64,000 bases of DNA, taken from Gonapodya prolifera JEL478 (taxonomy: Eukaryota; Monoblepharomycota; Monoblepharidomycetes; Monoblepharidales; Gonapodyaceae). Below the pieces are notes generated by a model. The model had not been told where the DNA came from and ran no database searches. It worked only from the letters and a program-made list of their open reading frames with translations. The position numbers were made by a program, and so were the translations under genes. Positions 406 to 27,183 of the stretch are shown here, in pieces. The stretch's first letter is position 1; the number at the start of each line of letters is the position of its first letter. Location of the stretch: positions 17,602 through 81,601 of the forward strand of contig KQ965844.1 of assembly GCA_001574975.1 (NCBI GenBank). Reading direction: 5' to 3'.

Positions 406-652
406 ACTACACGTGACAAGCGTAGGCAAGAGAAGGGCAAGAAAGAATGCATGAGCGAGTATTCAGTCATTGTGGATAACGTGAAAATCGATTCACTTTG
501 GAGAGTTCGCATTTCCTCAATGTTGTGAACAATCCACAACACATGACAACGAACATCACTCCAACTGCAGCCAATAAAATGAAAATGTAGATTGATATCC
601 ATGCAAAATGGTTCTTCGTGACTAAAGTATCCATGAATTCATCAAAGCAAGA

Positions 653-765
653 TTTTGCACAAGGGAGATGGGAACATGCCTTACGCAAGGGCAGTTGTGA
701 ATCTGGGAGAGGATCGCACCAGTCAGGAGTGCAACAAATGTTATCATGATGGAGTTCCGAAAATA
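653..765 (+). pseudogene. Relic of a Fanzor C-terminal zinc-finger region
   Basis: The translation of this short stretch (HKGDGN, RAVVNLGEDRTSQEC) is nearly the same as part of the Fanzor protein encoded at 15838-18139 on the minus strand, and the DNA is also closely similar over about 110 bases. It covers the last RuvC-II region, the alternative catalytic Glu (GEDRTS) and the first zinc-finger Cys pair (CNKC), then similarity stops. No other Fanzor part is seen upstream or downstream, so this is a fragment and not a gene. It shows that at least one other Fanzor copy once sat in this genome region. From 766 to 965 nothing is recognisable. Confidence 0.75.
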
Positions 766-965
766 GGCATAAATATCCTGGTCCTCAATCTCAGTGGCGC
801 AGTTTCCTGCGCTGCGGTGTGGCGGAGGGGTCCGGGGAAACGTGCAAGTACTTAAACTGACCAATTTTTTCATTCCACCACAAACAATTCCAGGTTGATG
901 CTGCTTCCTTTAGTTTCACAGGGGACCAGCAACGCTATAAGGATGTTGTCCGTAACCCAAAATGT

Positions 966-2860
966 GTGTTGATGTTGCTACTTCTTTTAGGTACGTTTAC
1001 AAATCTTTTCTGTGTGATTTGGAAGACTCACCTCTCATCCTCCCTTTTAGACCTGTCCACATTCATACTCACCAGCACAGTTGTTCCTTTTCGGAACAGT
1101 TGTGGTAGCCACCTCCAACTAGCCGGATCATGGTGTATGCCAATTGATTACTCAAACTGCGATGGTCAGGGGGGTAGTACATGTGGAGAGTGAGTTCATG
1201 TAAAAGGATAGAGTTGAGACTCTCGTGTTTACTTATTGCTTTTTTAGTGCTGCTTGTATAACTAATAGCACCTGTGAAACATGCTCCAACTCGGAATGGA
1301 TTACCCGCTGTCCAAATAGTCAAGGAACGGTCAAGATATGCAGGAATCCTGATACGGATTACGGCGCAGTGCGTTGTCATGAATTAAAAAGAGCAACTTT
1401 TCAATCCACTTACATAATGGGTAACAAAGTGTGGTACAGGATGTGTCGATTGTCCCTCAGCCTTTCCACAAGGGACTACCAATGCCTGGCCTTACTGCAA
1501 CGCTGGTACCTGTACGTTTGGTGAGGAATATGCAAATCGTTGTATCACTACAAAGCAATCTTCATGTGTTTGGCTCTACGAATGCTATCCAGGGTACATT
1601 TGATCAGCTGGCACTTGTGTTTGTGAGTTATATTTTTTTTCTTTGTTACAATGGTCTTCCTAAAACAAGTATTTTGGATTTTAGTCCCTTCTCCTCATTC
1701 ACCTCTCCCTCCTCCACCAACACCTCCTCCCTCTGTACCACCACCACCACCACCGCCACCGCCACCTCCACCTCCTCCCTCTCCACCTCCTGCAACACCA
1801 CCACCACCTCCGTCAGCTAACCCTTATACATCAATCGTTTTTTCACCTTTATTGTCATCGCTACCATCAACAGCTTCAACCCTGTCACCCGGTATATCGA
1901 TAACCAGTACCTCACTGAATCGCAGCAACATCACCAAATCATCAAACATGACCAATCTCGTTCCCATTATTGGTGCTGTCGCTGGTGGAATAGTAGTGCT
2001 TTGTCTGGTTGTTTTTTTCCTTATCAGGTACGTTCATTTCTTTGACTCCCGTTACTCACGGCGAATCATAATCATCTTTCCTGTAGACGGAGGAGATACA
2101 CTGGTGGCTTCAACAAGACTGGGCGTGGAAACGAAGAGCATTGGCAGATGCAATCTCTCTATCCGCCTGCATCAGGAGCTTTACCAAGATACCCAGATCC
2201 AACTTATTCAGCTTATTCAGATAATAAACAAGAGGAAATCCAACGTCTGGAGTTCTAAGCTCCTTATGCGGTGGCAGTGGTTATGTAGCTCCTCCCATCT
2301 CTCAGGCTCTCAGCAGCTCCTCCACGTTGTCTCAACCGCAGTGAGTTTCAAATCCCTCTCCATTCTGTGTTTTGGAAATAGGAGTGATTTATTACCCTTC
2401 ATAATAGGTGGTTCTTTATGCAAGTGGCCAGAGACACGAATGCCAATTCTGTACCTTACCAAGGTCAACTGATGTTTGTGGCTACACAGGTGACAAAACA
2501 TCAACAAATATTGATCTTTAATGTAACTCTAACCCTCTTTTGATTACAGCATTCCCCCAGTGAAGCAGATGAAATCGCGGTGTTTAAAGTGAGGAGACCT
2601 TTGATGTAAATTTTTCCTCTTCTTGACCAACATTCCCTTCCTACAGGGGCAATATGTAGAAGTCCAGGAAGTCTTTTGTGACAGTTGGGCCACCGGTCTT
2701 AAATGTGCGTATGACAGAACTCTTCTATACGTCTGCAGTTTCTGATTTGCGCACTGGGCCTTGTCAGCAAGACACTGGAGCCTTCGGAATGTTTCCACTT
2801 GACTGTCTTCAGCTTCATGATGTGATGACCAATATCAGCTACTTTGCGGGAATGGTGTAG
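966..2860 (+). CDS. Receptor-like membrane protein: Cys-rich ectodomain, Pro stalk, TM, SH3
   Basis: Multi-exon gene; the true start is not certain because 5' exons are unclear. Ectodomain exons about 1100-1192, 1246-1384 and 1424-1627 carry many Cys (for example CETCSNSEW, GTGCVDCPSAFPQG, CNAGTCTFG), like EGF/TNFR-type modules. Exon 1685-2027 encodes a long poly-Pro stalk, a Ser/Thr-rich linker and a hydrophobic transmembrane helix (IIGAVAGGIVVLCLVVFFLI) followed by basic residues RRRR after a 59-nt intron (2028-2086). Exons 2408-2489, 2550-2588, 2647-2704 and 2739-2860 join to an SH3 domain: MFVATQHSPSEADEI, VEVQEVFCDSWATG, then GAFGMFPLDCL, all in frame with GT-AG borders; stop TAG at 2858. 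Such a layout suggests a surface sensor with a cytosolic adaptor domain; ligand and pathway are unknown. Oddities: an in-frame TGA at 1601 after CYPGYI, and a frame conflict near 2255, so it may be decaying or misread. Confidence 0.6.
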
Positions 2861-3732
2861 TCCAGCGCTTTGAGTCCAGAAGCAATATCGCAACATCCAA
2901 GGTGTTTTCAAAGCACCAGGAAATGCACAAAATGCCGTCTCATGGAGGTTCTATCAGTCTCATTGAAACCTAATTCGAGAAGTTATGGAAAAGGAAGAGA
3001 TGAGACTGTAAAATTGAAAATGATACTGAAAATGCTGCTAAAAAATAAGATTTGAGACCAAAAAAGTACTGTTGAGACTGAAAGAAGGTGATAGACTGAT
3101 GAGACTGAAAAAGTGAGGTTGAAGAGATGCTAAAAATGAAGCCCCAACCACAAAAAAACAACAAACAACTAAACCTGTGAAATCGAAATTGTGCACTTTG
3201 CTCCATATGAAGCATATGATCAGGATATCGGTCTCAACTGTCTCATACGCTTATTTTCAGTCTCATCCGTACTATTTCGGTCTCAAGAACACTGAAGAAG
3301 GGTCTCATGGAGGTTCTATCGGTCTCATTGAAACCCAATTCGAGAATTTATGGATAAGGAAGAGGTGAGACTGTAATTTTGAGGTTGATACTAAAAATGA
3401 CATTTAAACATAAGAGATTGATCCTGCTATAAGGGGCGATAAACAAGTGCTGTAAAACACAACAATGTGCTAAGATGAGCATTCTAGTACACCTGGAAGT
3501 GCACAAGGAAACCACCCAGGCTCAAGCAGCGCTGACACAGTCTCATGTACAACCCTAGGGGGCAGCGATGTTGTTGAGGATTTCAGGGGAGGGAGGGCAT
3601 AAAATGGGGAGGATCAAAAAAAGGGAGATATTTTATAAGAGAGAGGGGGTAGGGAGCACAGCTACTGATAGCGGCGATCTGCTGCAATGGGGATGAGCGA
3701 GGTTGGCTGGGAGTTTTGGCGGTCAGAGAACC
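2861..3732. other. Intergenic stretch with no recognisable gene
   Basis: No convincing coding frame. It contains one pair of direct repeats (2939-3022 and 3302-3385, listed separately) and purine-rich text around 3590-3660. Nothing else is seen. Confidence 0.5.
2939..3385. repeat. Pair of ~80-bp direct repeats
   Basis: The stretch beginning TCTCATGGAGGTTCTATC at about 2939 recurs at about 3302 with few differences over about 80 bases, 363 bases apart. The spacer is rich in GAGACTG/TCTCA words. No target duplication or transposase is visible. Confidence 0.75.
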
Positions 3733-4860
3733 GTGCGGTGCCACAATTTATTGTACAATTTTCCCAACAATCCCCGAACACCCCCGATGGCTGCTGCAAA
3801 GCCATCTCTCACGCAATGGACGTCATCACAATCTGCCGATGCTTTGTTTCCCACTCCTTCCGCCTCAAACCGTGTTCGTTGATTCTTCCTCCGTCCCATT
3901 CAACCCCATGATGCACCAGAACGGGTCTGAAAACCAATAGGAAACTCTCCCTCATCTTTTAGATCGATCTTTAGCGCTGCGAAAAATGTGGTCGGGAAGG
4001 TGTTTCGTCCATCCCCGCACTCGCGGTATTCGCTCATCACGCAACGGACTGCCCCTCCACATGCCTCACCCGATGCCCCACATCTTGAACCTGTGAGAAC
4101 TGCTTGTTTTACTTTCGGCGTCTGTTCATCTCTGATGTCGCGTTTTTCAGTGCTCCACGACGGAAAGATGTAACACCCCGGAACCGCCGCCATCAGCTTC
4201 TGACATGAACAGCTCAATCACCGTCGTCAATACTGCTTCTGTATCTACCTCTCTGAAACATACATTTTGGGATTTGGAAGACCATCACGCGGATCAGGCG
4301 AATTATGGGGATCACGAGGATCATGATCTCAAATTCGGGAGGGATGTTCTGATTGAGGCACTGGTACGTCTTCACATCTTACACCGCTCTTCTTCTTCAT
4401 AGCTAAGACGTACTACGCGTGCAGTCCGTTTTGATGACAAACTCTTCGGCATCCCAACTCCCTCCAGAAATACTGGAAATGATTTTTCACTACATCCACC
4501 TGCGAGAATGTTACTCCACTTTACGATACGTCTGCTTGTCATGGCGCTGTTTAGTCATGGGGGGTCCCGTCCCCAGTCTCATAAACATTCAAATTGTCAA
4601 TGGGTTCGCGTGTCCTTCCCCTGTCGATCTTGAGAAAATGAAACCAGGTTTCAACATTGTCACCGCAAATCACCAACTCTTTGCGCACAACGGCTCTTGT
4701 GTTCCTCAACATAAGTACAAGCTCCAAATCAAATACCGCAATGACAACACAGTCCATCGAGGGAACTCGAGCGCCAATGGATCCCAAACGACGATCTCTC
4801 CAAGCCACTGTATTGTGTGCCTAATCATATCGTTGATCTTGAGAATGAGGCGTACACGTT
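3733..4860 (+). repeat. Segmental duplication, copy 1 (F-box gene and upstream region)
   Basis: From GGTGCCACAATTTATTG at about 3735 through the F-box coding sequence the DNA matches 22239-23458 at high similarity, with small indels. The duplicated block thus includes about 450 bases of upstream DNA, which could hold the promoter. Copy 2 holds an extra ~110-bp internal segment. The two copies lie about 18.5 kb apart in the same orientation. Confidence 0.85.
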
Positions 4861-5260
4861 TCTACGTTATGAGGATCCAAACTTTCCACTCCGCGCAGGG
4901 AAAAGTGTTGAATGTGGAATTGCCGTATGTCTCAGTTTATATTTCAACGAACCTGGACCGGGTGAAGAAGTGGTTTGGTTGGTTTGTGATCTTCAGGAGT
5001 TTTCAGTTCGTGCACTTGAGAAGGAATTTAGGCAACGTGTTTTTGGACGCTTATGCAAGATCGGGCTGCCAGACTGGAATAATCCTCAAATGTTGTTGGA
5101 CATTGCCTTTTTTACAACAACTGCAGTTGAGATAGGTAGTTCGGGCCACTGTGATTACTTTCGTGAACATTTATGGCGGTCCATAGCGGCTGATGGTATT
5201 ACATGTGAAATGTGGATGAATCATCCAGTACAGAAGTATAGAAAGCGAACACTCTATTGA
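4205..5260 (+). pseudogene. F-box protein gene, copy 1, frame broken
   Basis: Exon 1 (4205-4363) joins by a 61-nt intron (4364-4424) to exon 2, which begins with a clear F-box: QLPPEILEMIFHYI followed by TLRYVCLSW. F-box proteins bring substrates to SCF ubiquitin ligases; the substrate here is unknown. Compared with copy 2, about 7 bases are missing near 4753 after the residues DNTVH, which shifts the frame; the family sequence then resumes in another frame (WIPNDDL, PNHIVDLENEAY) and runs to TGA at 5258. So the domain is complete but the gene is split in two frames: MQSV... up to about 4753 and the remainder to 5260. Either a recent pseudogene or an assembly error. The end abuts an LRR-array fragment. 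Confidence 0.75.
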
Positions 5261-5261
5261 A

Positions 5262-5570
5262 GACCTGGCCTGGTCCCCCTTTTTCTCCAACTTCATGTTA
5301 CAGACAACAAAATTGGTGATGAAGGGGCGCGCGCTGTCGCCGAGGCCCTCAAGGTCAACAGGACGCTCACGGAGTTGTGGCTGAGAAGTGAGTGTGTGTG
5401 TTGAGTGGATAGTGGTGAGAGTGGTGTTGACGGTCGAACCAAACCTGGCCTGGTCCCCTTTTTCTCCAACGTAACGTAACAGAGAACTTGATCAGCGATG
5501 CTCAGAGGCGAGCCCTTGAGGCACTTGAGGCACTTGAATCAAGCACATGGTCCATCTACGTGTAGCAGGG
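5262..5570 (+). pseudogene. Orphan fragment of the LRR exon array
   Basis: One complete 84-nt LRR exon (5304-5387, residues IGDEGARAVAEALK and LTELWL) with its usual GTGAGTGTGTGTG donor and the CCTGGCCTGGTCC-type intron is followed by a second, decayed LRR exon from 5483 (ENLISDAQRRALEALEAL). No kinase or Sel1 coding lies upstream: the fragment begins inside an intron sequence directly after the F-box gene stop. It matches the array at 11472-12441. It is best read as a displaced copy of the 3' end of that gene, since its 3' flank is shared too. Confidence 0.8.
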
Positions 5571-8639: not shown

Positions 8640-8924
8640 ATTGCGAGATAGATCGGGGTTTATAGAGTATCCGGCGATGTGATTAAGGAAGAGATGGTAG
8701 GGCGTGAGGGAATATGAAATGGGAGAGAAATAGTTACTTCTGTGCTCTTTTGGATTGATTTGACAATAAATGGTCTGTGCAAAACTTGGATGATTCTTGG
8801 AGAAACTAATAGTTGAATCTTTTTACAGGTACAAGAACAGCTTTATCAGGACTACGTTGAACTCGATGGAACAAGGTTCAATCGAGAAACTGGTTCTACA
8901 CTTTGATACTAGACTTTGATAGTA

Positions 8925-9386
8925 TCAAAGACGAGGCGAGTCTTCCCCGTCTGGGACTTCTTCATAGTCGTGGTCATCATCAACGGAGTCCGAGTCGGAG
9001 ACCGAGTCGCCATCGGAGTCGGAATCTTCATCCATAGCTTCCATATCATTGTCATCGTCATGGTCGTCGTCGTTGTCCGATTCCCACATTTGATCAGCAT
9101 CATCATCGACGGCGGCATCATCATCATCATCGAGAGCGGCATCAAGGTCGGCGAGATTGTATATGCCAATCGCGAGGTTAGATTGGAAGGAGGAGCAGAG
9201 GGGGAATTGTGATGGAAGGACGGATTGATCGGCCATTGCGAGGGAATAGGCGATCAGGAGGTCATTGAAGCAGCGGAGGAATTCTTCAGAGTGGAGAGAG
9301 GAAGAGACATCGACAATAACAGAGATTTTGAGAACATTTCTCCACTGTACAAACAAGTGCCATGACCAAAGCATCCGAAAACCCAC
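8925..9386 (-). CDS. Acidic-tailed hypothetical protein
   Basis: Single open frame on the minus strand ending in a long Asp/Glu/Ser tract (DDDDDAAVDDDAD, DSDSDGDSVSDSD) and the ending EVPDGEDSPRL. No domain is recognised; the true start may be the downstream Met of MADQSVLPSQF. What supports it as a gene is that its last about 90 bases, including the stop, occur again at 15551-15670. The acidic tail is common in nuclear chaperone-like proteins, but nothing more specific can be said. Confidence 0.35.
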   Translation of the reverse strand: MGFRMLWSWHLFVQWRNVLKISVIVDVSSSLHSEEFLRCFNDLLIAYSLAMADQSVLPSQFPLCSSFQSNLAIGIYNLADLDAALDDDDDAAVDDDADQMWESDNDDDHDDDNDMEAMDEDSDSDGDSVSDSDSVDDDHDYEEVPDGEDSPRL

Positions 9387-15550: not shown

Positions 15551-15670
15551 TGATACTACACTTTGATACTAGACTTTGATAGTATCAAAGACGAGGCGAG
15601 TCTTCCCCGTCTTGGACTTCTTCATAGTCGTCGTCCTCATCCATATCATTGTCATCGTCGACGTCATCGA
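15551..15670 (-). pseudogene. Copy of the 3' end of the acidic-tail gene
   Basis: About 15563-15625 is nearly identical to 8904-8966, covering the stop and the last codons of the acidic ORF (EVPDGEDSPRL), followed by a shortened Asp/Glu tract. It ends at the TA that flanks the transposon, so the element sits beside, or inserted into, this copy. No matching continuation is seen right of 19320. Confidence 0.8.
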
Positions 15671-15672
15671 TA

Positions 15673-15693
15673 CGGCGTTGGTCATAAATAATG
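15673..15693 (+). repeat. Left terminal inverted repeat
   Basis: CGGCGTTGGTCATAAATAATG directly after TA at 15671-15672. It pairs with 19298-19318. Ten of its bases (GTTGGTCATA, 15677-15686) are also inverted at 15790-15799, so this end has a second, internal copy of the terminal word. Confidence 0.85.
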
Positions 15694-15837
15694 TAACTAG
15701 ATAGTCATTCATTACTTGTACCCACTGTAGGGGGACTCTAACCCCCATACCCTTTGTTCAGGGTATCCCGTTCGACCTCCGCGTCGCAATATGACCAACA
15801 ATGGAGCCAACAGGATTGTATTGACTTTAAGAAAGTC
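15673..15837 (-). ncRNA. Candidate Fanzor guide (omega) RNA region
   Basis: The 165 bases between the Fanzor stop codon and the element end are non-coding and highly structured. An outer 10-bp perfect stem (15677-15686 with 15790-15799) encloses two hairpins that touch each other: GGGGG/CCCCC (15730-15734 with 15742-15746, 7-nt loop) and ATACCC/GGGTAT (15747-15752 with 15761-15766, 8-nt loop). In TnpB and Fanzor systems the guide scaffold is transcribed from this very place, the 3' end of the nuclease gene running to the element end, with the guide taken from flanking DNA. Position and folding fit; transcription is not shown by the sequence alone. Confidence 0.55.
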
Positions 15838-18139
15838 CTAAGCTGGATGCCCTCGATAACCCCGCACAAAGTTCCCTGGTCTCATTCCATTGTGTGAGTT
15901 CCCGAAAAGCCAAACAGATCGAATATTCAGCGCAGCACAAATGTCCCTGTTCCAGTAGGTCTGGCATTGGGCACATCTTTTGATACGCCAAATCTTTTTT
16001 CCGTCAATGTGCACATCTGTCAACACAGTTGGTACTCCATGATGATGACAGTTGTTGCACTCCTGACTGGTCCGATCCTCTCCCACATTCACAACTGCCC
16101 TCACATAAGACCTGTTACCATCTCCCTTGTGCAAAATGCTACACAGTAATTTGAGCAGCATGGTTGTTCCTGATATTCCTTGTCGTTCAGGTGCACTCAA
16201 ATCACTAGTAACAAAAACAATATCCCGCCGCTCGGGTTCCTGAACTGGTTCTCGGTGAGAGGATTTCCGTCTCCGACGTACACGATTTGAATTCCGAACA
16301 AAATCAAAGTCCTGTCCCTTCTCGTCACGTTGTCCAAGATGCGATATCCGACGTGCAAATCTATGCAGAACTCGGTTCCTCGCAACAGAAAAATTCCAAT
16401 TGTCTTGGGTGCAAGAAGAATCTCGATAGGCTACCAGAAGTTCACGTGCCACAAGACTGAACTGTTCTAGTCGTTTTAAAGCATCTCTGTAGTTGGTTGT
16501 TTTCGCTGTTGGTAATGAAGATTGCATCGCTTCCCATCCTCCCGTTTTCAGGTACCGTTTCAGTCTTCTAGCTGAAGCCCTAAGCCCAGTGGAATGGTAA
16601 TATTCATTCCGAGACACATCAAAACAGTAACTCGGTTTGACTCCAGATTCTGAAACAGGACCTCCAGCTACTGTTCCTCCTGGCTTGTTGGGATCCATAG
16701 CCACAACAATAGTATTGTCATTGAGTTCGACACTCTCGAATGAAGGTCCGTCTCCAGAACTGTTGTCAACACGTGGAATCCTCATGATTTTTTGGATGCA
16801 CACCTTGAGACCATTGGTAGTCAAGGTTCCAGCAAATTGCTTCGCCTCAGAAAGGTTTTCAACCGCACGGACATTGAATATTTGTCTAATGTGGAGTTCT
16901 TCAGCCGGAATCCTCCTGTTCCCCAATTGCACATGCAGTGAGTGCAAGTCTCTACAACCACGCTCGTCAAGCATGATATGATGAGGTTTGAATCCATAGA
17001 TCGGAGCCAATGAAAATTTTCTAGGAGGTCGAGGATAACTTTTTCCTTCTGCAACAAGGATTGATGTCCTTGCTTCGAGATCAGAAAGTAGGAAACGAAG
17101 CGCTTCGAGGTAATGAGGCCATAACTGGCAATTCTCATCCCACGAGGATTTTGAAATAGGATTCTCAATCATTGAGAGAATTGGCATAGCTGATCGAAAA
17201 GTGAGAGCAAGACCTCTGATAAACCTTTTGTAATGATCATCCAATTTGGAAGCTGTAACGGTAAAAAATGTATCAAAGTGTCATTGGAAGTGCGACCATG
17301 CAGTTTTTCGATCGTTCAAAGAAATATTTGGAAATCGAAGTCGAGTAAGCCATATGACGTGATTCTTGAGTCGATTGGCAAAATTGAAGACCACATTATT
17401 GATGAACATGGTCATGTACCCATCACACGCGAATCTGAGAGGATTGTAAAGTCGGAATGGCCATTGGTAGTTTGATGGAACAGTCTGAGATAAAGTATTC
17501 CTATACCGAGTGATCGAGGGATATGATGTTAGTGCTATTCAAGAAGCATTAATCTTGAAAGAAATCATAGTTAGGACATTGGTTTGGAGAAGTGGATTCC
17601 AGACTACTTACCCCCAAGTCTGTGACAGGTTGGAGACGTGGTTTTTGACTAGTTACTGAAATCTCCGATGCAATTTGCCAAATGAAATCGGAATTTATTT
17701 TAGAAGCTTGTTGCAAATAGGCTGGGTTTGGGTCCGATGGAACGATGTCAAGAGTACAGAGGGTTGTATTCATAATTTCAGAGACTGCTTTCATAATTGA
17801 TGTTTGATCTAAAACTGCTCGTTGAATTGTCTGTAGTAGTTCGGGTTGAAGAAGAACTCGACTGATATTGAAACAGGATGTCCGCGTGACTGTTTCCATT
17901 GGAATTTCTGAAGTTTGGAGAGCCTTGACCTTTCTCATTGCGGCAAGTTTAGTCTTTTCGACATATTTGGGACATAGTTTCAATGATGAGTGTTGGTGGT
18001 CAGTTCCTTTGCATTTTGGACAAGGTTTGGTTTTGGGATCAGGAGGTTTAGGTGGTTTAGGTGGTTTAGGTGGTTTAGGTGGTTTTGTTTGTTTAGCGGG
18101 TTTGGTTGGAGGCCGTTTGGCTTTTGGCTTTGGTGGCAT
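15838..18139 (-). CDS. Fanzor (eukaryotic TnpB-like RNA-guided nuclease)
   Basis: Exon 1 (18139-17612) encodes a Lys/Pro-rich lead with KPPKPPKPP repeats and a zinc-knuckle CPKCKGTDHQ...LC, then a helical part. A 127-nt intron (17611-17485, GTAAGT...CAG, phase 0) leads to exon 2 starting TVPSNYQWPFRLYNPL and running through VVFNFANRLKNHVIWLTRLR. The last exon (about 17250-15838) is 468 codons long. Numbered in that exon: RuvC-I Asp184 in VVAMDPNK; the canonical RuvC-II Glu place holds Ser347 (VTSDLS); an alternative Glu389 lies 42 residues on (GEDRTSQEC); zinc-finger Cys396/399 and Cys424/427; RuvC-III Asp434 in WNRDICAALNI. This rearranged site is the mark of Fanzor versus TnpB. Fanzors cut DNA guided by an omega RNA. 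The join between exon 2 and the last exon (about 17250-17300) is uncertain: splice sites there do not give a clean frame, so a small intron or a frameshift is possible. Confidence 0.88.
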
Positions 18140-18260
18140 TGATAGGGATGATGAATGAGAGAGAATTGGGGTGTTTATAAATTGGAGATTGAAGATCTTG
18201 CTTGAGTGTGATTTCTAACACATGATTGTGATCTCCATCACAGGATGACGATCTAAAAAT

Positions 18261-19244
18261 CTAAGCAAAGGAACGTAGTGGGATCAATGATTTCAAAAAA
18301 CAATGATCAAAAATACGTTGTACCTTAGAACTAGTCAGGGTGGCAACCAAATTTCTGATGGAATTTATAAGAGCTTCTAGCGTTTTTGGACGATATTGAC
18401 GAACTCTTCCCTTGATTATAGAAAATAAATGTTCAATTGGATTCATAAATGGTGAATATGGAGGAAGAAAGAGTATAGAATTGTTCTTTTTAGAAACAGT
18501 TTGCTGTATGATTTCGAGGTTTTGTTTCTTGAGTACGTTTGAAGCGTGGTGGACACGAAGATTGTCCATGAGTATGGTACAAGATTTGAATCTCTTTGAC
18601 ATTCTTTCAAGAAAACTTTGAAAGGAAACAGCATTGAGAGCGCTTTCGCGGAGTTCCCAGTACAAATGCGATTCATCAGGGTGGTTTGGAGAATATTTCG
18701 CAGCCAAGATCAGTGTATAGGATTTTGAAGACAATGTGGATAGAGGGGGTGGAGGTCTTGATCCACTCTTGACAAGAACTTTTCGAGAAAGATCATTGAG
18801 TTTGAAACAGGATTCATCAATGGCCACCCAATGATGACAGGCTATTTTTTGTATTTTATCTCTTACTTTTTGGATCTCAGCTTCATCAGCTTTCTTTTTT
18901 AATTTTGAACGTCCTACATAAGAGCAACCATGATGTCTGAAGATTCGACCAATTGATCGTCTTGATAAGTAAATATTTGATTCTTCCAACTGTTTACTCA
19001 AAGCCAGTTGAGTCAGTTGGCCATTGGAAACAATAGCTGCATTGCAAATTTCAATTTCTTGTTGAGGAGTATATTTTCTGGGACGACCAGCAGGCTTGCG
19101 ATTGTACAGGTGTAAACCATGACACCAACGCCATATTGTGATTGCAGAAACTTTGAACACTGAACAGAGATTTTTTAGCAGGACCCCTGATTTCAAAAGT
19201 GCTACACACGCAAGTTTTGATGCGCTTTCAAGGTGCTTAGTCAT
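18261..19244 (-). CDS. Tc1/mariner (IS630-like) DDE transposase
   Basis: A single 327-codon frame. The N-terminus has a helix-turn-helix (GVLLKNLCSVFKVSAITIWR) and an AT-hook-like GRPRKYT, then a second winged-helix part (LTQLALSKQLEESNI). The catalytic DDE domain shows Asp in WVAIDESCF, Asp in ILMDNLRVHHA and Glu in PFMNPIEHLFSIIK; LPPYSP before the Glu is the family hallmark. About 43 residues separate the second Asp and the Glu. It would cut at the terminal inverted repeats and insert at TA. Length is that of a full-length family member and no stop interrupts it. It precedes the Fanzor gene on the same strand with a 121-base gap. Confidence 0.92.
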   Translation of the reverse strand: MTKHLESASKLACVALLKSGVLLKNLCSVFKVSAITIWRWCHGLHLYNRKPAGRPRKYTPQQEIEICNAAIVSNGQLTQLALSKQLEESNIYLSRRSIGRIFRHHGCSYVGRSKLKKKADEAEIQKVRDKIQKIACHHWVAIDESCFKLNDLSRKVLVKSGSRPPPPLSTLSSKSYTLILAAKYSPNHPDESHLYWELRESALNAVSFQSFLERMSKRFKSCTILMDNLRVHHASNVLKKQNLEIIQQTVSKKNNSILFLPPYSPFMNPIEHLFSIIKGRVRQYRPKTLEALINSIRNLVATLTSSKVQRIFDHCFLKSLIPLRSFA

Positions 19245-19297
19245 TTCTATTGAAAACGTAGAAAAACAAATTATTTCATATTATTATGTATCATTTT

Positions 19298-19318
19298 CAT
19301 TATTTATGACCATCGCTA
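19298..19318 (-). repeat. Right terminal inverted repeat
   Basis: Read on the minus strand this is TAGCGATGGTCATAAATAATG, matching the left end in 18 of 21 positions, followed outside by TA (19319-19320). It lies 54 bases upstream of the transposase ATG, so it also bounds the promoter region of the element. Confidence 0.85.
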
Positions 19319-19506
19319 TATCTACGCACAACTGGTGCCTGTTTGAATGACGTGAGTGAACTTGGGAAGGTTGCTCGGCTCAAGTACTGGTGGAACAATC
19401 CATTCTGGAGATTCAGATACTTGAGATTTTCAACTAAGATTATCCCAAAGTAAACTTTGGACAATTATTTCCATTTATTGTTGCCAATTCCCCAGTAGGT
19501 ATTCAA

Positions 19507-20729
19507 ATGTGTTCGAAGTACATTGACATGGAAGAGCGTTATAATTTGCTGAAGATTGCGTACCTAATTAAGTTTTTGATGGAGGCTGCGCCACTTTTGA
19601 GGCCTTTCCTGATCTTTGGGGCAAACAAGGACTGTGGCGCAGCCGAAGATGATTTAGAAAGAGATGGAAAGACATTGAAAAAAAGGATGGATGATGAACC
19701 AAGTGAGTTGATATTATCATGTCTTTCAAAATAAGGCATAATAGTTGAACTCTACGAAGTGGATTTGGTGGACGAAGTGGCGGAGAAGAGAGGGAGACTT
19801 GAACCAAACTCTCCCATCATACGCATTAATGTCCTTACGGAGAAGGATAACGACAAGGATTACGAGGATAGTGAGTTCATAGCATGTCATTCAAAAAAAA
19901 TCATTAACCGCTCATTGAAATTTGCAAAGTGGATTTGGTAGACGATGTGACAAGGAAGAGTGTGAGATTCGATGAAAAACCTCCCACCATACACATTTGT
20001 ACCCTTCCTGAGTATGGTAACGACAAGGAAGATGACGAGGACAAGGACGAGGAGAATAAGAATACCCCGAGCCTCACTCAACCCGTCAATTCGGATATCA
20101 CTCTGGTCTTGCTCGCTCAGGCTCCAGAGCCTCCAATCACACTCATCTATCCCACGGCTTTGACTGATGTTCTTGACATCACAATCGATGAAGCATTGTC
20201 ATCCCAAGAAAATGTTGAAAACATAATCAGGGATGCAGGCAATGGCAACGCTCTCATAGCACTCATGAATACGTTCGCATCTCCGGTCATTAGGATGATT
20301 GATACGGAAGCAACCTACAAGAAAAACAAAACCATCATCCGCATCTTGATCGCGAAGGCAAGAACTCAGGTCGCGCGTGGAAATGTGACTCCGCAAGTGA
20401 AAACACTCTTTCAAAGATTCTTAAGCCCATGGATGAAGGATTCAAGAACGTTGACCTACATTATTTGTCGACAACTCTCTCAATCGTCAGGACATGACAG
20501 GCGGTTCGGTCTCCAGCTAATGTGGACATTTTATGCAGAGAACACATTATTTGAACAGTTGGCTGTCCCTTTTTATCGTTCTTCCTTCACCCCTGCATCG
20601 ATCCTGACGCTCTATTGTGGTCGTTATTACCCAACTTTGAGTTCTTGCTATTTTACCCACGAGGATGCCATGAACGTGGTTTTTTCTGTTTGCAATTCAT
20701 TCACACCCAAGAAAGTCGCTAAAATTTGA
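19507..20729 (+). CDS. Hypothetical protein with tandemly duplicated exon
   Basis: Exon 1 (about 19507-19702) is joined to exon 2 (19760-19870) and exon 3 (19930-20729), each starting TGGATTTGGT after AAG and in phase 1. Exon 2 (MDLVDEVAEKRGRLEPNSPI) and the start of exon 3 (MDLVDDVTRKSVRFDEKPPT) are clear duplicates, and the introns before them share words such as ATGTC(A)TTTCAAAA. After an acidic Lys/Glu/Asp tract comes a 200-residue helical part (IDEALSSQENVENIIRDAG, LFEQLAVPFYRSSFTPAS) of no family I recognise. KSVRF resembles an RVxF phosphatase-1 docking motif, a weak hint only. Stop TGA at 20727. The gap to the transposon (19319-19506) holds nothing recognisable. Confidence 0.5.
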
Positions 20730-23458: not shown

Positions 23459-23600
23459 GTCATGGAAGATCACATACGACGGCGCGGGGAAAGGAAGCAC
23501 ATACCTGCTGTCTCTCCTCCTCTGCCTTTTTGAGATTGCGGCATGCCATGATGACGGTAGCGCCGAGCTGTGCGAGGTTGGCCGTTGTGTACTGGTGACG
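22714..23600 (+). pseudogene. F-box protein gene, copy 2, chimeric and truncated
   Basis: Exon 1 (22714-22873) and exon 2 (from 22933, after a 59-nt intron) encode the same F-box as copy 1: QLPPEILEMIFHHIPV, TLRYVCSSW. An internal duplication gives two related segments, YINDGVVHPSRTDIARM and IVNGFAHPSRTDLENM. The frame stays open through the place where copy 1 is shifted (WIPNDDLIKPLYRVPYHIID), but at about 23459 the F-box sequence ends and antisense SDR exon sequence follows, adding about 47 unrelated codons to a TGA near 23598. The C-terminal two fifths known from copy 1 are thus missing. The product, if made, is a truncated F-box protein. Confidence 0.8.
23459..23598 (-). pseudogene. Antisense copy of SDR exon 2
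   Basis: About 139 bases nearly identical (one or two differences) to 25888-26026 in reverse. They hold all of exon 2 of the SDR gene (25893-25979) with 5 bases of intron 1 and about 47 of intron 2. The near identity points to a recent copy. Confidence 0.9.
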
Positions 23601-23699
23601 TGTACCTTCCAACTTGCAACAGTTCACTTCAACAGTTCAATTTTGACCAAGCCACCTCCTGTCTTATGAGCGGAGCTCAAGCCTCTGCAGAGCGTGACA

Positions 23700-24331
23700 A
23701 CAAATCCAACATCAATGTCGGAGAGAAAAAGCGAGTATGTATATTTGCAATCGTGTATACCTCTGGGCAAAAGGGATCCACGGCATACCGCCTCGTGTGA
23801 ACATTATCCCCCCATCAGACCGAACTTTCCCCCCTCCCCTCACCAACCCAAACTCAACAAAACTATACTAACCCTTACAAATTTCATCTTTCACCTAGTT
23901 GCCGTGCTATTTTTGACCAAGACATCATTCTTTCTCGTGAAAGGAGCTCAAGAGTTTTATTCGCGATATTCCTCAAGATAATTCGAAAGATAAGCGTGTA
24001 TATTCGCAATTGTGTACGCATGTGCGGTGTGCGCAAATGAAAGACGTATCACGAGCTCATTCACACATCACCTGATTGTTCACTGTTGCCAATCTTGACA
24101 ACGCAATAAATGTAAATTTTGACCGAAACATCCCCCGTTCTCATGATGGGGGCCATGCTTTTGTTCTATCGGAAGACTCGAGACAAGTTTGAAAGAAACG
24201 CGTGTATATTCGCAACCATCTACACCTCTTTGCACAAACGTAAAACCCCTACATACGTCTCACCCATTCACAGACGCAACCCGTGCACCAAACCCCACAT
24301 CAAACCCACCCTCACCAACCCAACTCATCCC
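23700..24331. other. Intergenic with repeated GTGTATATTCGCAA words
   Basis: Three related stretches start near 23733, 23993 and 24201 (GTATATTTGCAATCGTGTA, GTGTATATTCGCAATTGTGTA, GTGTATATTCGCAACCATCTA), with matching CGAAAGA/GACCAAGACATC text upstream of two of them. They lie downstream of the minus-strand RRM gene and may be duplicated 3' flank. No gene is seen. Confidence 0.55.
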
Positions 24332-25486
24332 TTAGTACCTATCCCTCCTTTCCCTTCCACCGTCACGATCGTAACCCCCACGGTCACCACCGCGCCTGTC
24401 GTCCCTATCGTACGACCTGCCGCCTCCACGGTCGCCTCCTCCGTACCGGTCCCCGCCGCGCGACGGGTAGGGGTCCCGCTCGCGGTCGCGGTCGTAGCGT
24501 GGGCGGTCCCCGCCGTATGCGCCACCTCCGCGCCCCCCGCCCCCACCGCCGCGGGAGCCGGAGCCGCCGCGGGAGACTTCGACTTTGATGTTGCGGCCGT
24601 CGACTGGTGAGGAGTGGGAAGACGGGAAGAAGTGGGAGAGAGGAAGAAGTTGTAAGAAGTCGGAGCAATGAAGAAGTTAAGAAGGATGTGATTGGTGCGG
24701 GCTGCAAACGCAAGATGCCAAAGACTCACGCTCGGCCTCGTTCATGCCCTTGACGGCGGCGTCGGCGTCGGCTTGGGTTCCGAACGTGACGAAGCCGAAG
24801 CCCTTGGATTTGCCTGGCGGTTATGGGCGGTGTGCAAGGAAGCGGTGCCAAGAGCAGGAGCAGAAGGAGGAGAAGGAATATGTGCAGAAGAGGGAGTAAT
24901 GGAACATGGCGTTGAACAGGACGGAACGGAACAGGAGCGGCTCGGCGAGCGAGCGAGTACAAGCCGGGTGGCAAGAACGAGAACGAGAACAAGAACGGGG
25001 GGTACGAAGAAAGGNAACGGAGCAAAGAACAAGAACAGGAATATGGGTTCCCTGATACGACACAATCCGGTGTGTGGCGCTGATTTGACTCTTTTTCGTG
25101 AGCAGCGGCAAAGACCACAGACGGCACGCTAGAGCATTGGCCAGACNNNNNNNNNNNNNNNNNNNNNNNNNNNNNNNNNNNNNNNNNNNNNNNNNNNNNN
25201 NNNNNNNNNNNNNNNNNNNNNNNNNNNNNNNNNNNNNNNNNNNNNNNNNNNNNNNNNNNNNNNNNNNNNNNNNNNNNNNNNNNNNNNNNNNNNNNNNNNN
25301 NNNNNNNNNNNNNNNNNNNNNNNNNNNNNNNNNNNNNNNNNNNNNNNNNNNNNNNNNNNNNNNNNNNNNNNNNNNNNNNNNNNNNNNNNNNNNNCTGCCG
25401 AACGAGTTGAACGCCTCGCGCAGAGAGTCCTCTGTGGTGCGGAACGACAGCGACCCGCAGTAGACCGTCACTTCGCCTTCAGACAT
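24332..25486 (-). CDS. RRM and Gly/Arg-rich RNA-binding protein, split by assembly gap
   Basis: Start at 25486: MSEGEVTVYCGSLSF, then TTEDSLREAFNSFG, the first half of an RRM (RNP2-like). The middle is lost in the N run (25147-25394). Exon 24813-24730 gives the RNP1 motif SKGFGFVTF and ADADAAVKGMNEAE; the last exon (24603-24332) gives DGRNIKVEVSRGG and then a tail of RGG, GDR and YDRD repeats ending RDRY with stop TAA. This is the glycine-rich RNA-binding protein layout (one RRM plus RGG tail); such proteins bind mRNA in nucleus and cytoplasm and often respond to stress. Introns are of usual fungal length except the one holding the gap. A similar gene lies at 49740-50806. Confidence 0.8.
25147..25394. 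other. Assembly gap (run of N)
   Basis: All bases are N. The gap falls between the first and second halves of the RRM in the flanking minus-strand gene, so it hides at most one small exon and intron sequence. Confidence 0.99.
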
Positions 25487-25723
25487 GGTGTGTGTGTTGA
25501 CGGGAGAGAAAACAAAGTGGAACCCTGGAAACGCTGTGCCTCCTTTGCCACACCAGCCAAGCCAAAAAAAAAAAGGAAAGCGTATATAATCTTTTTTACG
25601 AACAGTCAATTTCATCTCGTGAATAAGATTGTCCGATATAAAAGCACTCGCTTGCAATCATGCATGTCGCATCCTGTCTGCATAACCAGAGATCCCATCA
25701 ATTGAAATTTCAACCTCGAACCG

Positions 25724-27183
25724 ATGCCCGGACTCGAACTTCTGAAACTCCCGTTCCCCAAAGTCGACATTCTCGGCCGCGTGGTGATCGTTACCGGTGC
25801 AAACAACGGAGTCGGTTTGGTAAGCGAAATTCTGTTTGTTGCGTGGCAGTTGGCCGTTGGTTGGGCATGCTGAATATCGTTCCCTTCACCAGTACACAAC
25901 GGCCAACCTCGCACAGCTCGGCGCTACCGTCATCATGGCATGCCGCAATCTCAAAAAGGCAGAGGAGGCGAGACAGCAGGTATGTGCTTCCTTTCCCCGC
26001 GCCGTCGTATGTGATCTTCCATGACAATTGAGGTCCGGCTCCGACTTACCACGATCGCAAGGTCATCGCAACTGTCCCCGACTCAACATCCCGAATCTTT
26101 GTCCGTCACCTCGACTTGTCCGACTTTTCTAGCGTGAAGACGTTCGCGACAGGCGTGATGAAGGAGTGGGACACCGTTGACGTTTTGGTGAGTTCAAGAT
26201 CCTCCTCGAATTTTCGCTCTCTGGCCTCAATCACTGGCCAACCTCGCGCGACCTTTGTCGTCTCAGATCAACAACGCCGGAATCGTCGGTCAAAAGACCC
26301 GAGAAACGACTGTAGACGGTAAGCTCTCTAGTCTCTCAAAAGTCACCTTCGCATCCTCCATTCCAACCTCCGCAACCCCACACAGGAAACGAAGTCTCGT
26401 TCCAAACAAACCATCTCTCGCACTTTCTCCTCACCAACCTCCTCCTCCCGGTCCTCCAACGGAGCACCTACCCTGCACGAATCGTGAGTTGTGTCTGTTG
26501 TTGAGGTCAAGTCAGGGGTCACTCCCGTCTTTCGGTCCTCACCTGTTCCCCACCGCCCTCACCCCGTTATCGAAATTCAACGACAATACAACAGGTCAAC
26601 GTGGCGTCCATGGCCGCATACCCGCTCACCAAACTCAACATCGACGACCTGAATTTCGAGAAGCACTACCCGGACATCTTTGAGCTGTACCCAAAGACAA
26701 AGGTACTTCCTCACCCTTCTTGCTCCTCCTCTCCACTGTCTCACCCGCCCATTTCACGTCTCACCTCAAACCTCACCCCCACAATCCCCGTGCACGCACG
26801 CACACCAGCTCTCCAACTACGCCTTCACCGCCGAGCTCTCCCGCCGGCTCGCCACCTCCCCCTCCCTTTCCCACATCTCCACATCCACCGTCTGCCCCGG
26901 CTTCGTCATAACCGGTCTGGGAGTCAACGTCGACGAAGCCGCCATCACCGCCATTCGCGAAAAAGGCGGCGCCCGCCCTGGTCACGAGGGCGCGTTCTCG
27001 AGCGTGTACGCTGCGTGTTCGGTCGAGGCGGGTGAGGCGCCAAAGGGGGAGTGGAGGTTTTATGATACATATGCAGTGAAGCAGGAGCTGCATCCGGTTG
27101 CGAAGGATGAAGAGGTTGGGAGGAGGTTGTGGGAGGAGAGTAGGCGGTTGGTGGGGAGGTTTGGAGGGGAGGTGACGCTGTGA
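25724..27183 (+). CDS. Short-chain dehydrogenase/reductase (retinol dehydrogenase-like)
   Basis: Seven exons, all with GT-AG borders: 25724-25819, 25893-25979, 26062-26187, 26267-26318, 26386-26483, 26595-26702, 26809-27183. The joined protein of about 310 residues has the Rossmann motif TGANNGVG, GATVIMACRN, the structural INNAG, the Ser region VNVASMAAY and the catalytic YxxxK as YPKTK, split by intron 6 right after the Lys; PGFVITGLG follows. It should be an NAD(P)-dependent oxidoreductase; substrate unknown. Its closest look is to the WW-oxidoreductase/retinol-dehydrogenase-like SDRs of fungi. All key residues are present. A piece covering exon 2 is copied in reverse at 23459-23598, and its 3' flank (27226-27303) has a relative near 29047-29133. 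Confidence 0.92.

What the first reader, a model, noticed from the sequence alone, without database searches (positions are those of the whole stretch)
15673..19318. A whole-looking Tc1/mariner transposon that carries a Fanzor nuclease
Seen: 21-bp inverted ends (18 matches) each flanked by TA, a full DDE transposase frame and a Fanzor gene between them on one strand. Known: Fanzors are TnpB-derived RNA-guided nucleases found as passengers in several eukaryotic transposons including mariner types; active forms have been shown from fungi, algae and a mollusc. Inference: the two genes form one mobile unit in which the nuclease may help the element persist at, or return to, its site. The open transposase frame suggests it is young enough to test.
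Basis: partly seen in the sequence, partly recalled or inferred. Interest (0 to 1): 0.95.

Follow-up and report, generated by a model that had tools for sequence, protein, structure and literature searches.

The report
Jumping gene carrying Fanzor nuclease
A jumping gene, probably of a fungus, carries both its own cut-and-paste enzyme and a Fanzor gene, a relative of CRISPR nucleases; this pairing was already known, and the Fanzor gene in this copy appears to be broken.

Summary
The element is real. At 15673-19318 there are 21-bp inverted ends (18 of 21 match) with TA on both sides, an open 327-aa IS630/Tc1/mariner transposase with all three DDE acids, and a Fanzor1-type gene on the same strand. 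A partial copy elsewhere confirms the left border; the right border rests on the inverted repeat and TA alone. It is the only full copy found. Two other loci hold both genes, or their remains, between their own inverted ends, one with another gene order, so the pairing recurs. One correction: the Fanzor gene is not whole. It needs one intron removed and still has an in-frame TGA (17281-17283) in a stretch that is coding in relatives. Its 3' end, through the inverted repeat into the flank, folds strongly and shows one compensatory change in a stem that contains the repeat, as a Fanzor guide RNA might; support is thin. Fanzor1 with a Mariner transposase is in print since 2013 (PMC3627910), so this is a new member of a known kind, useful because the well-studied fungal element Spu-1 has no transposase between its ends.

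The parts
15673..19318 (-). Whole element, 3646 bp, IS630/Tc1/mariner type
   Evidence: left border also from the partial copy at C61
15671..15672 (.). TA outside the left end (half of the presumed target-site duplication)
19319..19320 (.). TA outside the right end
15673..15693 (+). Left terminal inverted repeat, 21 bp (beside the 3' end of the Fanzor gene)
19298..19318 (-). Right terminal inverted repeat, 21 bp (beside the 5' end of the transposase gene)
18261..19244 (-). Transposase gene, 327 aa, open; D at 18816-18818, D at 18564-18566, E at 18432-18434 (83 and 43 residues between)
17612..18139 (-). Fanzor exon 1, from ATG 18139; Pro/Lys-rich start and a CX2CX4HX7C motif at 17972-18022
17485..17611 (-). 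Predicted intron, 127 nt, GTAAGT...CTCAG
   Evidence: of 8 AG sites within 260 nt of the donor, only this one keeps the frame open as far as the TGA
17281..17283 (-). In-frame TGA inside the Fanzor coding region
15838..17484 (-). Fanzor exon 2 with the RuvC/zinc-finger half; D196 (16693-16695), E401 (16078-16080), D446 (15943-15945), four Cys; residue numbers count from 17280
15673..15837 (-). Predicted guide-RNA (reRNA/omega-RNA) scaffold: hairpins plus a stem that contains the inverted repeat
   Evidence: control end
15651..15670 (-). Predicted guide segment: host flank just outside the TA, read on the minus strand
   Evidence: Inference from other Fanzor1s, PMC10711439 and PMC10432273 (passages); no RNA data

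Best explanation
It is a nearly complete IS630/Tc1/mariner-type DNA transposon, the only full copy found in its genome, that carries a Fanzor1-type RNA-guided nuclease as its second gene. Shown by sequence: two inverted ends flanked by TA, an open transposase frame, a Fanzor gene with its D-E-D active-site motif but one in-frame stop, and a 3' region predicted to fold strongly in which the inverted repeat forms part of a stem. Inferred: the transposase cuts the element out and pastes it into a TA. A non-coding RNA read from the end of the Fanzor gene through the inverted repeat and the TA takes the next ~14-20 bases of host DNA as its guide, so Fanzor would cut chromosomes that have that site without the element, and repair from the element-bearing copy would restore or spread it. 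In this copy the second function is probably lost, or supplied by another copy, because the Fanzor frame is interrupted.
For: Borders and genes. Left border by a second copy: the match at C61 begins at the TA/repeat and the flanks beyond it differ. Same pairing elsewhere in the genome: C50 (L038), 3592 bp, ends 18 of 21 with TA on both sides, the best of 38,034 TA-flanked pairs, Fanzor and transposase divergent; C143 (L037), ~625 bp, ends 19 of 20, the best of 6,827,303 pairs with TA not demanded, transposase start and Fanzor end inside. Fanzor signature: Glu six residues before the first zinc-finger Cys, the 'alternative' position given for Fanzors in PMC10711439. Guide-RNA-like end: z -4.15 for 15650-15790 (1 of 200 shuffles as good); the C61 copy z -3.12 (3 of 200); the transposase end z +0.13 and -1.24; in the inner stem that holds part of the inverted repeat 13 pairs, 12 unchanged, 1 changed on both sides (A-T to G-C), none broken.
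Against: The right border has no second copy. No empty site was found. The Fanzor has an in-frame stop. The 141-nt stretch was chosen after seeing the hairpins; the 201-nt stretch gives z -2.74 and the opposite strand z -2.51. Over the whole predicted structure (48 pairs) the C61 copy keeps 27 unchanged, changes 2 on one side and 1 on both, breaks 5 and has a gap at 13; the first hairpin is lost (6 of 7 pairs gapped). The 3' ends of C50, C66 and C143 fold no better than shuffles (z -0.08, -0.70, +0.87). C143 has TA at one end only (TT at the other). No transcript data. The AlphaFold model was useless (mean pLDDT 32).
Confidence: 0.75

Rival explanations
1. The Fanzor gene is a passenger with no present function: the transposase moves the element and the Fanzor is simply decaying inside it.
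For: In-frame TGA; one full copy and fragments; 10 of 20 TNB matches in the genome carry stops, 9 of those 10 including TGA (two of the 20 are overlapping rows at C3).
Against: Catalytic acids, zinc finger and nearly the whole frame remain; the pairing recurs in C50 and C143; the guide-RNA-like fold remains.
Confidence: 0.35
2. Two genes brought together by chance: a Fanzor element and a Tc1/mariner element inserted next to each other, with fortuitous outer ends.
For: The right end is not confirmed by another copy.
Against: The inverted-end pair is alone, outside one palindrome, among 539,294 pairs; C50 and C143 show both genes, or both remains, inside other inverted ends; the left end matches a second copy.
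Confidence: 0.04
3. The Fanzor is functional after all: the TGA is removed by splicing, read through, or an assembly error.
For: 15 GT-AG introns of 30-250 nt and suitable phase would remove it; there is one assembly and it could not be rechecked.
Against: Each such intron would also remove residues that align with coding sequence of C50, C66 and C102 (judged by eye on that alignment, whose relatives are frames set end to end). TGA is the commonest end of ORFs of 200 codons or more in the window, 18 of 34, so recoding is unlikely, though not excluded.
Confidence: 0.15

Closest known systems
PGv-1 and PUl-1, Mariner elements with Fanzor1 and a Mariner-like transposase (Bao and Jurka 2013, PMC3627910; passages seen)
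   Same: Fanzor1 plus Mariner-like transposase between inverted ends flanked by TA.
   Different: Those are in a large virus of algae and in Pythium (an oomycete); PGv-1 has a third gene. Here the host looks like a fungus and the Fanzor has an in-frame stop. The sequences were not compared directly.
SPu-1 element / SpuFz1 of Spizellomyces punctatus (PMC3627910, PMC10432273; passages seen)
   Same: Fungal Fanzor1, inverted ends, putative TA duplication, guide RNA read from the 3' end of the gene through the inverted repeat (only predicted here); D-x-N at the first catalytic acid.
   Different: No transposase was found between Spu-1 ends, and there are many copies plus 134 'ghost' loci; this element has its own transposase and one full copy was found.
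SfAV Fanzor1 element (PMC10711439 and PMC3627910; passages seen)
   Same: Guide-RNA scaffold predicted to take in the inverted repeat and target-site duplication; RNA runs ~15 nt beyond.
   Different: 4-bp target duplications and no transposase; RNA measured there, only predicted here.
Bacterial IS630 transposase (NCBIfam NF033545)
   Same: The transposase matches above the curated cut-off (residues 24-315).
   Different: 43 residues between the second D and the E, longer than the DD34E-DD41D groups in the paper listing (though that listing also has Sailor, DD82E); eukaryotic host; carries Fanzor.

Membership tests
IS630/Tc1/mariner transposon | DDE transposase of the IS630/Tc1/mariner kind | tested here: met
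   DDE_3 64.3 bits (cut-off 28.6); IS630 model 127.1 bits (cut-off 100); D155, D239, E283
IS630/Tc1/mariner transposon | Terminal inverted repeats | tested here: met
   18 of 21
IS630/Tc1/mariner transposon | Insertion at TA with TA duplicated | tested here: inconclusive
   TA on both sides, but no empty site found in this genome
Fanzor (Fanzor1) | Zinc-finger TNB domain and motif D-X(125-275)-[TS][TS]XX-C4-X(5-50)-RD (PMC3627910) | tested here: met
   TNB 33.8 bits (cut-off 26.3); D196, 207 residues, TS404-405, C408/411/436/439, RD445-446
Fanzor (Fanzor1) | Alternative RuvC2 Glu six residues before the zinc finger (PMC10711439) | tested here: met
   E401 and C408, (motif only; no usable model)
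Fanzor (Fanzor1) | RuvC1 DPG, 'near exclusively' in Fanzors (PMC10711439) | tested here: inconclusive
   Here DPN; the proven SpuFz1 has D383 and N385 at its active site (PMC10432273), so the glycine is not required
Fanzor (Fanzor1) | Complete reading frame | tested here: not met
   In-frame TGA 17281-17283; this marks a damaged copy, not another family
Fanzor (Fanzor1) | Guide RNA from the 3' end of the gene through the element end | tested here: inconclusive
   Predicted fold and one compensatory pair; no RNA data
Fanzor (Fanzor1) | RNA-guided DNA cutting | not testable with these tools
   Needs biochemistry

The most novel reading that the evidence does not exclude
In this genome several separate IS630-type transposon lineages keep a Fanzor with its 3' end against one inverted repeat, and the repeat that the transposase recognises is also half of a guide-RNA stem. 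A change in the repeat is then matched by a change in the RNA, so the cut-and-paste enzyme and the RNA-guided nuclease evolve locked together, and the Fanzor actively maintains a cut-and-paste transposon at its site.
Probability: 0.25. Interest if true: 0.7.

Novelty: new member of a known kind. Interest (0 to 1): 0.42.

Why it matters
What Fanzors do for their carriers is open: PMC10432273 (passage) says the biological role is unknown and that no transposase was found between Spu-1 ends. An element with transposase, Fanzor and predicted guide RNA in one unit, in a genome with further such units, would allow a direct test of whether Fanzor helps a cut-and-paste transposon persist. Its worth is limited by the broken Fanzor frame and the single full copy.

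Tried and rejected
Element ends as a search pattern: 14 places with up to 2 mismatches against 9 for the reversed control; the two ends here and C61 are among the 14; of the rest I examined C96 only, which showed no other element sequence. Copies of the C50 element: the search was swamped by the ~240-bp repeat nested in it, so it says nothing about further copies. The C143 element has no second copy by DNA, only a weak 102-bp match at C37. Ends for the other Fanzors: C66 has a 33-nt inverted pair (24 of 33, TA-flanked), but at 21 nt its pairs are no better than others in that locus; C102 none. C8: transposase and Fanzor end are neighbours, but the best inverted pair is 15 of 18 without TA, so no ends are claimed. 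Viral contigs: 7 and 1 pattern matches, none a relative of transposase or Fanzor. Database proteins: 3 for the Fanzor exon and 4 for its profile, one each time the window's own; 6 distant ones (28-33% identity) for the transposase. Structure prediction with 4 sequences was too poor, so no fold search was run. Solved structures: none for the single Fanzor sequence; Guillardia theta Fanzor1 first for the profile, at E 0.011; Sleeping Beauty for the transposase at E 0.016. Paralogues of the left flank (window 8896-8981, C102) do not include the right flank, so they are not empty sites. Terms DD41E to DD45E: two unrelated papers. A 2023 Science Advances survey of eukaryotic Fanzors (recalled) is not held, so an earlier report of this exact type cannot be excluded. 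My first gene model used a wrong splice acceptor and was replaced. My note calls C143 TA-flanked; only its left end is.
Full report
What is there. The window lies in an unnamed 47.6-Mb genome of 207 contigs. Two matches to a chitin-synthase N-terminal family, over its cut-off and absent from 14 control genomes, fit a fungus (that the family is fungal is recalled); the species could not be named. Between 15673 and 19318 lie two 21-bp inverted ends that match at 18 of 21 positions with TA directly outside each. In the whole window 539,294 TA-flanked pairs 0.3-8 kb apart were scored; 4 reach 16 of 21, and 3 of those belong to one palindrome at 23477-26007. So the ends are very unlikely to be chance.

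The transposase. The frame 18261-19280 (minus) is open for 339 codons, 327 from the first Met. It matches DDE_3 and, over the curated cut-off, the IS630 family. The acids are D155, D239 and E283 (numbered in the 339-codon frame), with 43 residues between the last two. That spacing is longer than in the DD34E-DD41D groups of the paper listing, which also holds one much longer group, Sailor (DD82E); titles and starts of abstracts were seen only. A search for DD41E to DD45E found nothing relevant.

The Fanzor. The gene starts at 18139, has a probable 127-nt intron at 17611-17485, and ends at a TAG at 15838-15840. It has a TNB zinc-finger domain and the acids D196, E401 and D446, numbered from 17280, with E401 six residues before the zinc finger, the arrangement reported for Fanzors (PMC10711439, passages). 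It has DPN where Fanzors have DPG 'near exclusively', but the proven SpuFz1 has D383 and N385 (PMC10432273, passages). A profile of nine sequences hits Guillardia theta Fanzor1 first among solved structures, weakly (E 0.011); the single sequence hit nothing.

The correction. The gene has an in-frame TGA at 17281-17283. The residues on both sides align with coding sequence of the Fanzors at C50, C66 and C102, which makes an intron there unlikely, although 15 GT-AG introns of the right phase exist. TGA ends 18 of 34 ORFs of 200 codons or more in the window, so it looks like an ordinary stop. CpG is depleted in the element (0.72 of expectation; whole window 0.95), and 10 of 20 TNB matches in the genome carry stops, 9 of these 10 including TGA, two rows at C3 overlapping; both fit decay by C-to-T change. 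This copy therefore probably makes no full-length Fanzor.

Copies and borders. By DNA there is one full copy and two fragments: C61, positions 3-399 of the element, 81% identical, and C114:18253-18359, which is window 652-758, 89%. The C61 copy begins at the TA/inverted repeat and the sequences beyond differ, confirming the left border. Aligned site by site, its coding part is 84% identical (197 of 234), its 3' non-coding part 87% (110 of 127, with 17 sites gapped) and its inverted repeat 18 of 21. The right border rests on the inverted repeat and TA. The joined flanks find no empty site. By protein the genome has 18 transposase and 15 Fanzor matches, lower bounds, most of them distant.

Is the pairing a unit? 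I think yes. At C50 a 3592-bp element with ends CAGCA... (18 of 21, TA on both sides; best of 38,034 pairs) holds a Fanzor on one strand and a transposase on the other, both interrupted, with a ~240-bp repeat inside. At C143 a ~625-bp element with ends matching at 19 of 20 holds the start of the transposase (60% over 58 residues) and the end of the Fanzor (52% over 50); TA is outside the left end but TT outside the right. At C8 a transposase and a Fanzor end are neighbours without convincing ends. The families are old: C50 against the window gives 41-54% identity over the back half of the Fanzor, 34-36% over the front, and 26-39% for the transposase. In the window element and in C50, C61 and C143 the Fanzor match ends about 70-165 bp from an element end, as needed if a guide RNA is read out through that end.

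The guide-RNA reading. The minus strand 15790-15650 folds at z -4.15 (1 of 200 shuffles as good), the C61 copy at z -3.12 (3 of 200); the transposase end gives z +0.13 and -1.24. In the inner stem that holds part of the inverted repeat there are 13 pairs: 12 unchanged in the C61 copy, 1 changed on both sides, 0 broken. Of the 14 pairs that reach into the flank, 6 are unchanged, 1 is changed on one side, 5 are broken and 2 gapped, as a variable guide would allow. Over all 48 predicted pairs: 27 unchanged, 2 one-sided, 1 both, 5 broken, 13 gapped. Against this reading: only two sequences, a stretch picked after seeing hairpins (z -2.74 for 201 nt), one hairpin lost in C61, the opposite strand z -2.51, and no excess folding at C50, C66 or C143. 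In insect-virus Fanzor1s the inverted repeat and target duplication are predicted to be part of the RNA scaffold, and the RNA runs ~15 nt beyond (PMC10711439, passages); SpuFz1 needs a CATA motif and its native guide is 14 nt (PMC10432273, passages). Here the two bases before the TA on the far side are GA; they are CT in C50 and TA in C143, so no motif beyond TA can be named.

Comparison with what is known. Bao and Jurka (PMC3627910, passages) reported Fanzor1 with Mariner transposases in 2013; fungal cases there include SPu-1 (putative TA duplication, one ORF only) and MuDR-like ones. Saito et al. state that they found no transposase between the Spu-1 ends. PMC10711439 names Mariners among Fanzor1-associated transposases. 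Among papers held, 5 contain both 'Fanzor' and 'mariner' and 1 contains both 'Fanzor' and 'chytrid'. In the passages and listings that I saw there is no fungal Tc1/mariner element with both genes, but I did not read these papers whole and a major survey is not held, so I claim only a new member of a known kind.

Verdict. A real, well-bounded transposon with a real pairing of transposase and Fanzor; the pairing is known; the Fanzor of this copy is interrupted; the guide-RNA reading is plausible, thinly supported and testable.

Noticed in passing
L043 (C37) 3233-5512 and 3280-4017 (+): An IS607-type element with serine recombinase (IS607 model 144.1 bits, cut-off 110) and an open Fanzor2/TnpB frame (759 codons stop to stop; DPG and the alternative Glu seen by eye), beside a Fanzor1-like C-terminal piece at 2329-3177 (-)..
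   Followed up: partly
L038 (C50) about 3569-3809 (element positions 2161-2401): A ~240-bp repeat nested in the C50 Fanzor element: 41 of the 49 other matches listed are 96-100% identical over about its whole length (378 candidates, 40 scored); looks like a recently spread short repeat..
   Followed up: no
window 23477-26007: Inverted repeat (palindrome) with a run of N inside; three TA-flanked pairs match at 20-21 of 21..
   Followed up: no
window 8896-8981; L071 (C102) 668-912: The left flank of the element, the end of an acidic-tailed reading frame, has relatives at 97% and 77% identity; neither continues into the right flank..
   Followed up: partly
window 17972-18022; L040, L041: A CX2CX4HX7C zinc-knuckle-like motif near the start of the Fanzor, also in the Fanzors at C66 and C102..
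   Followed up: partly
window 652-829: A fragment of the same Fanzor family (89% DNA identity over 107 bp), inverted, about 15 kb from the element..
   Followed up: partly
window 19702-20041: Two adjacent ~170-bp segments about 71% alike in the right flank..
   Followed up: no
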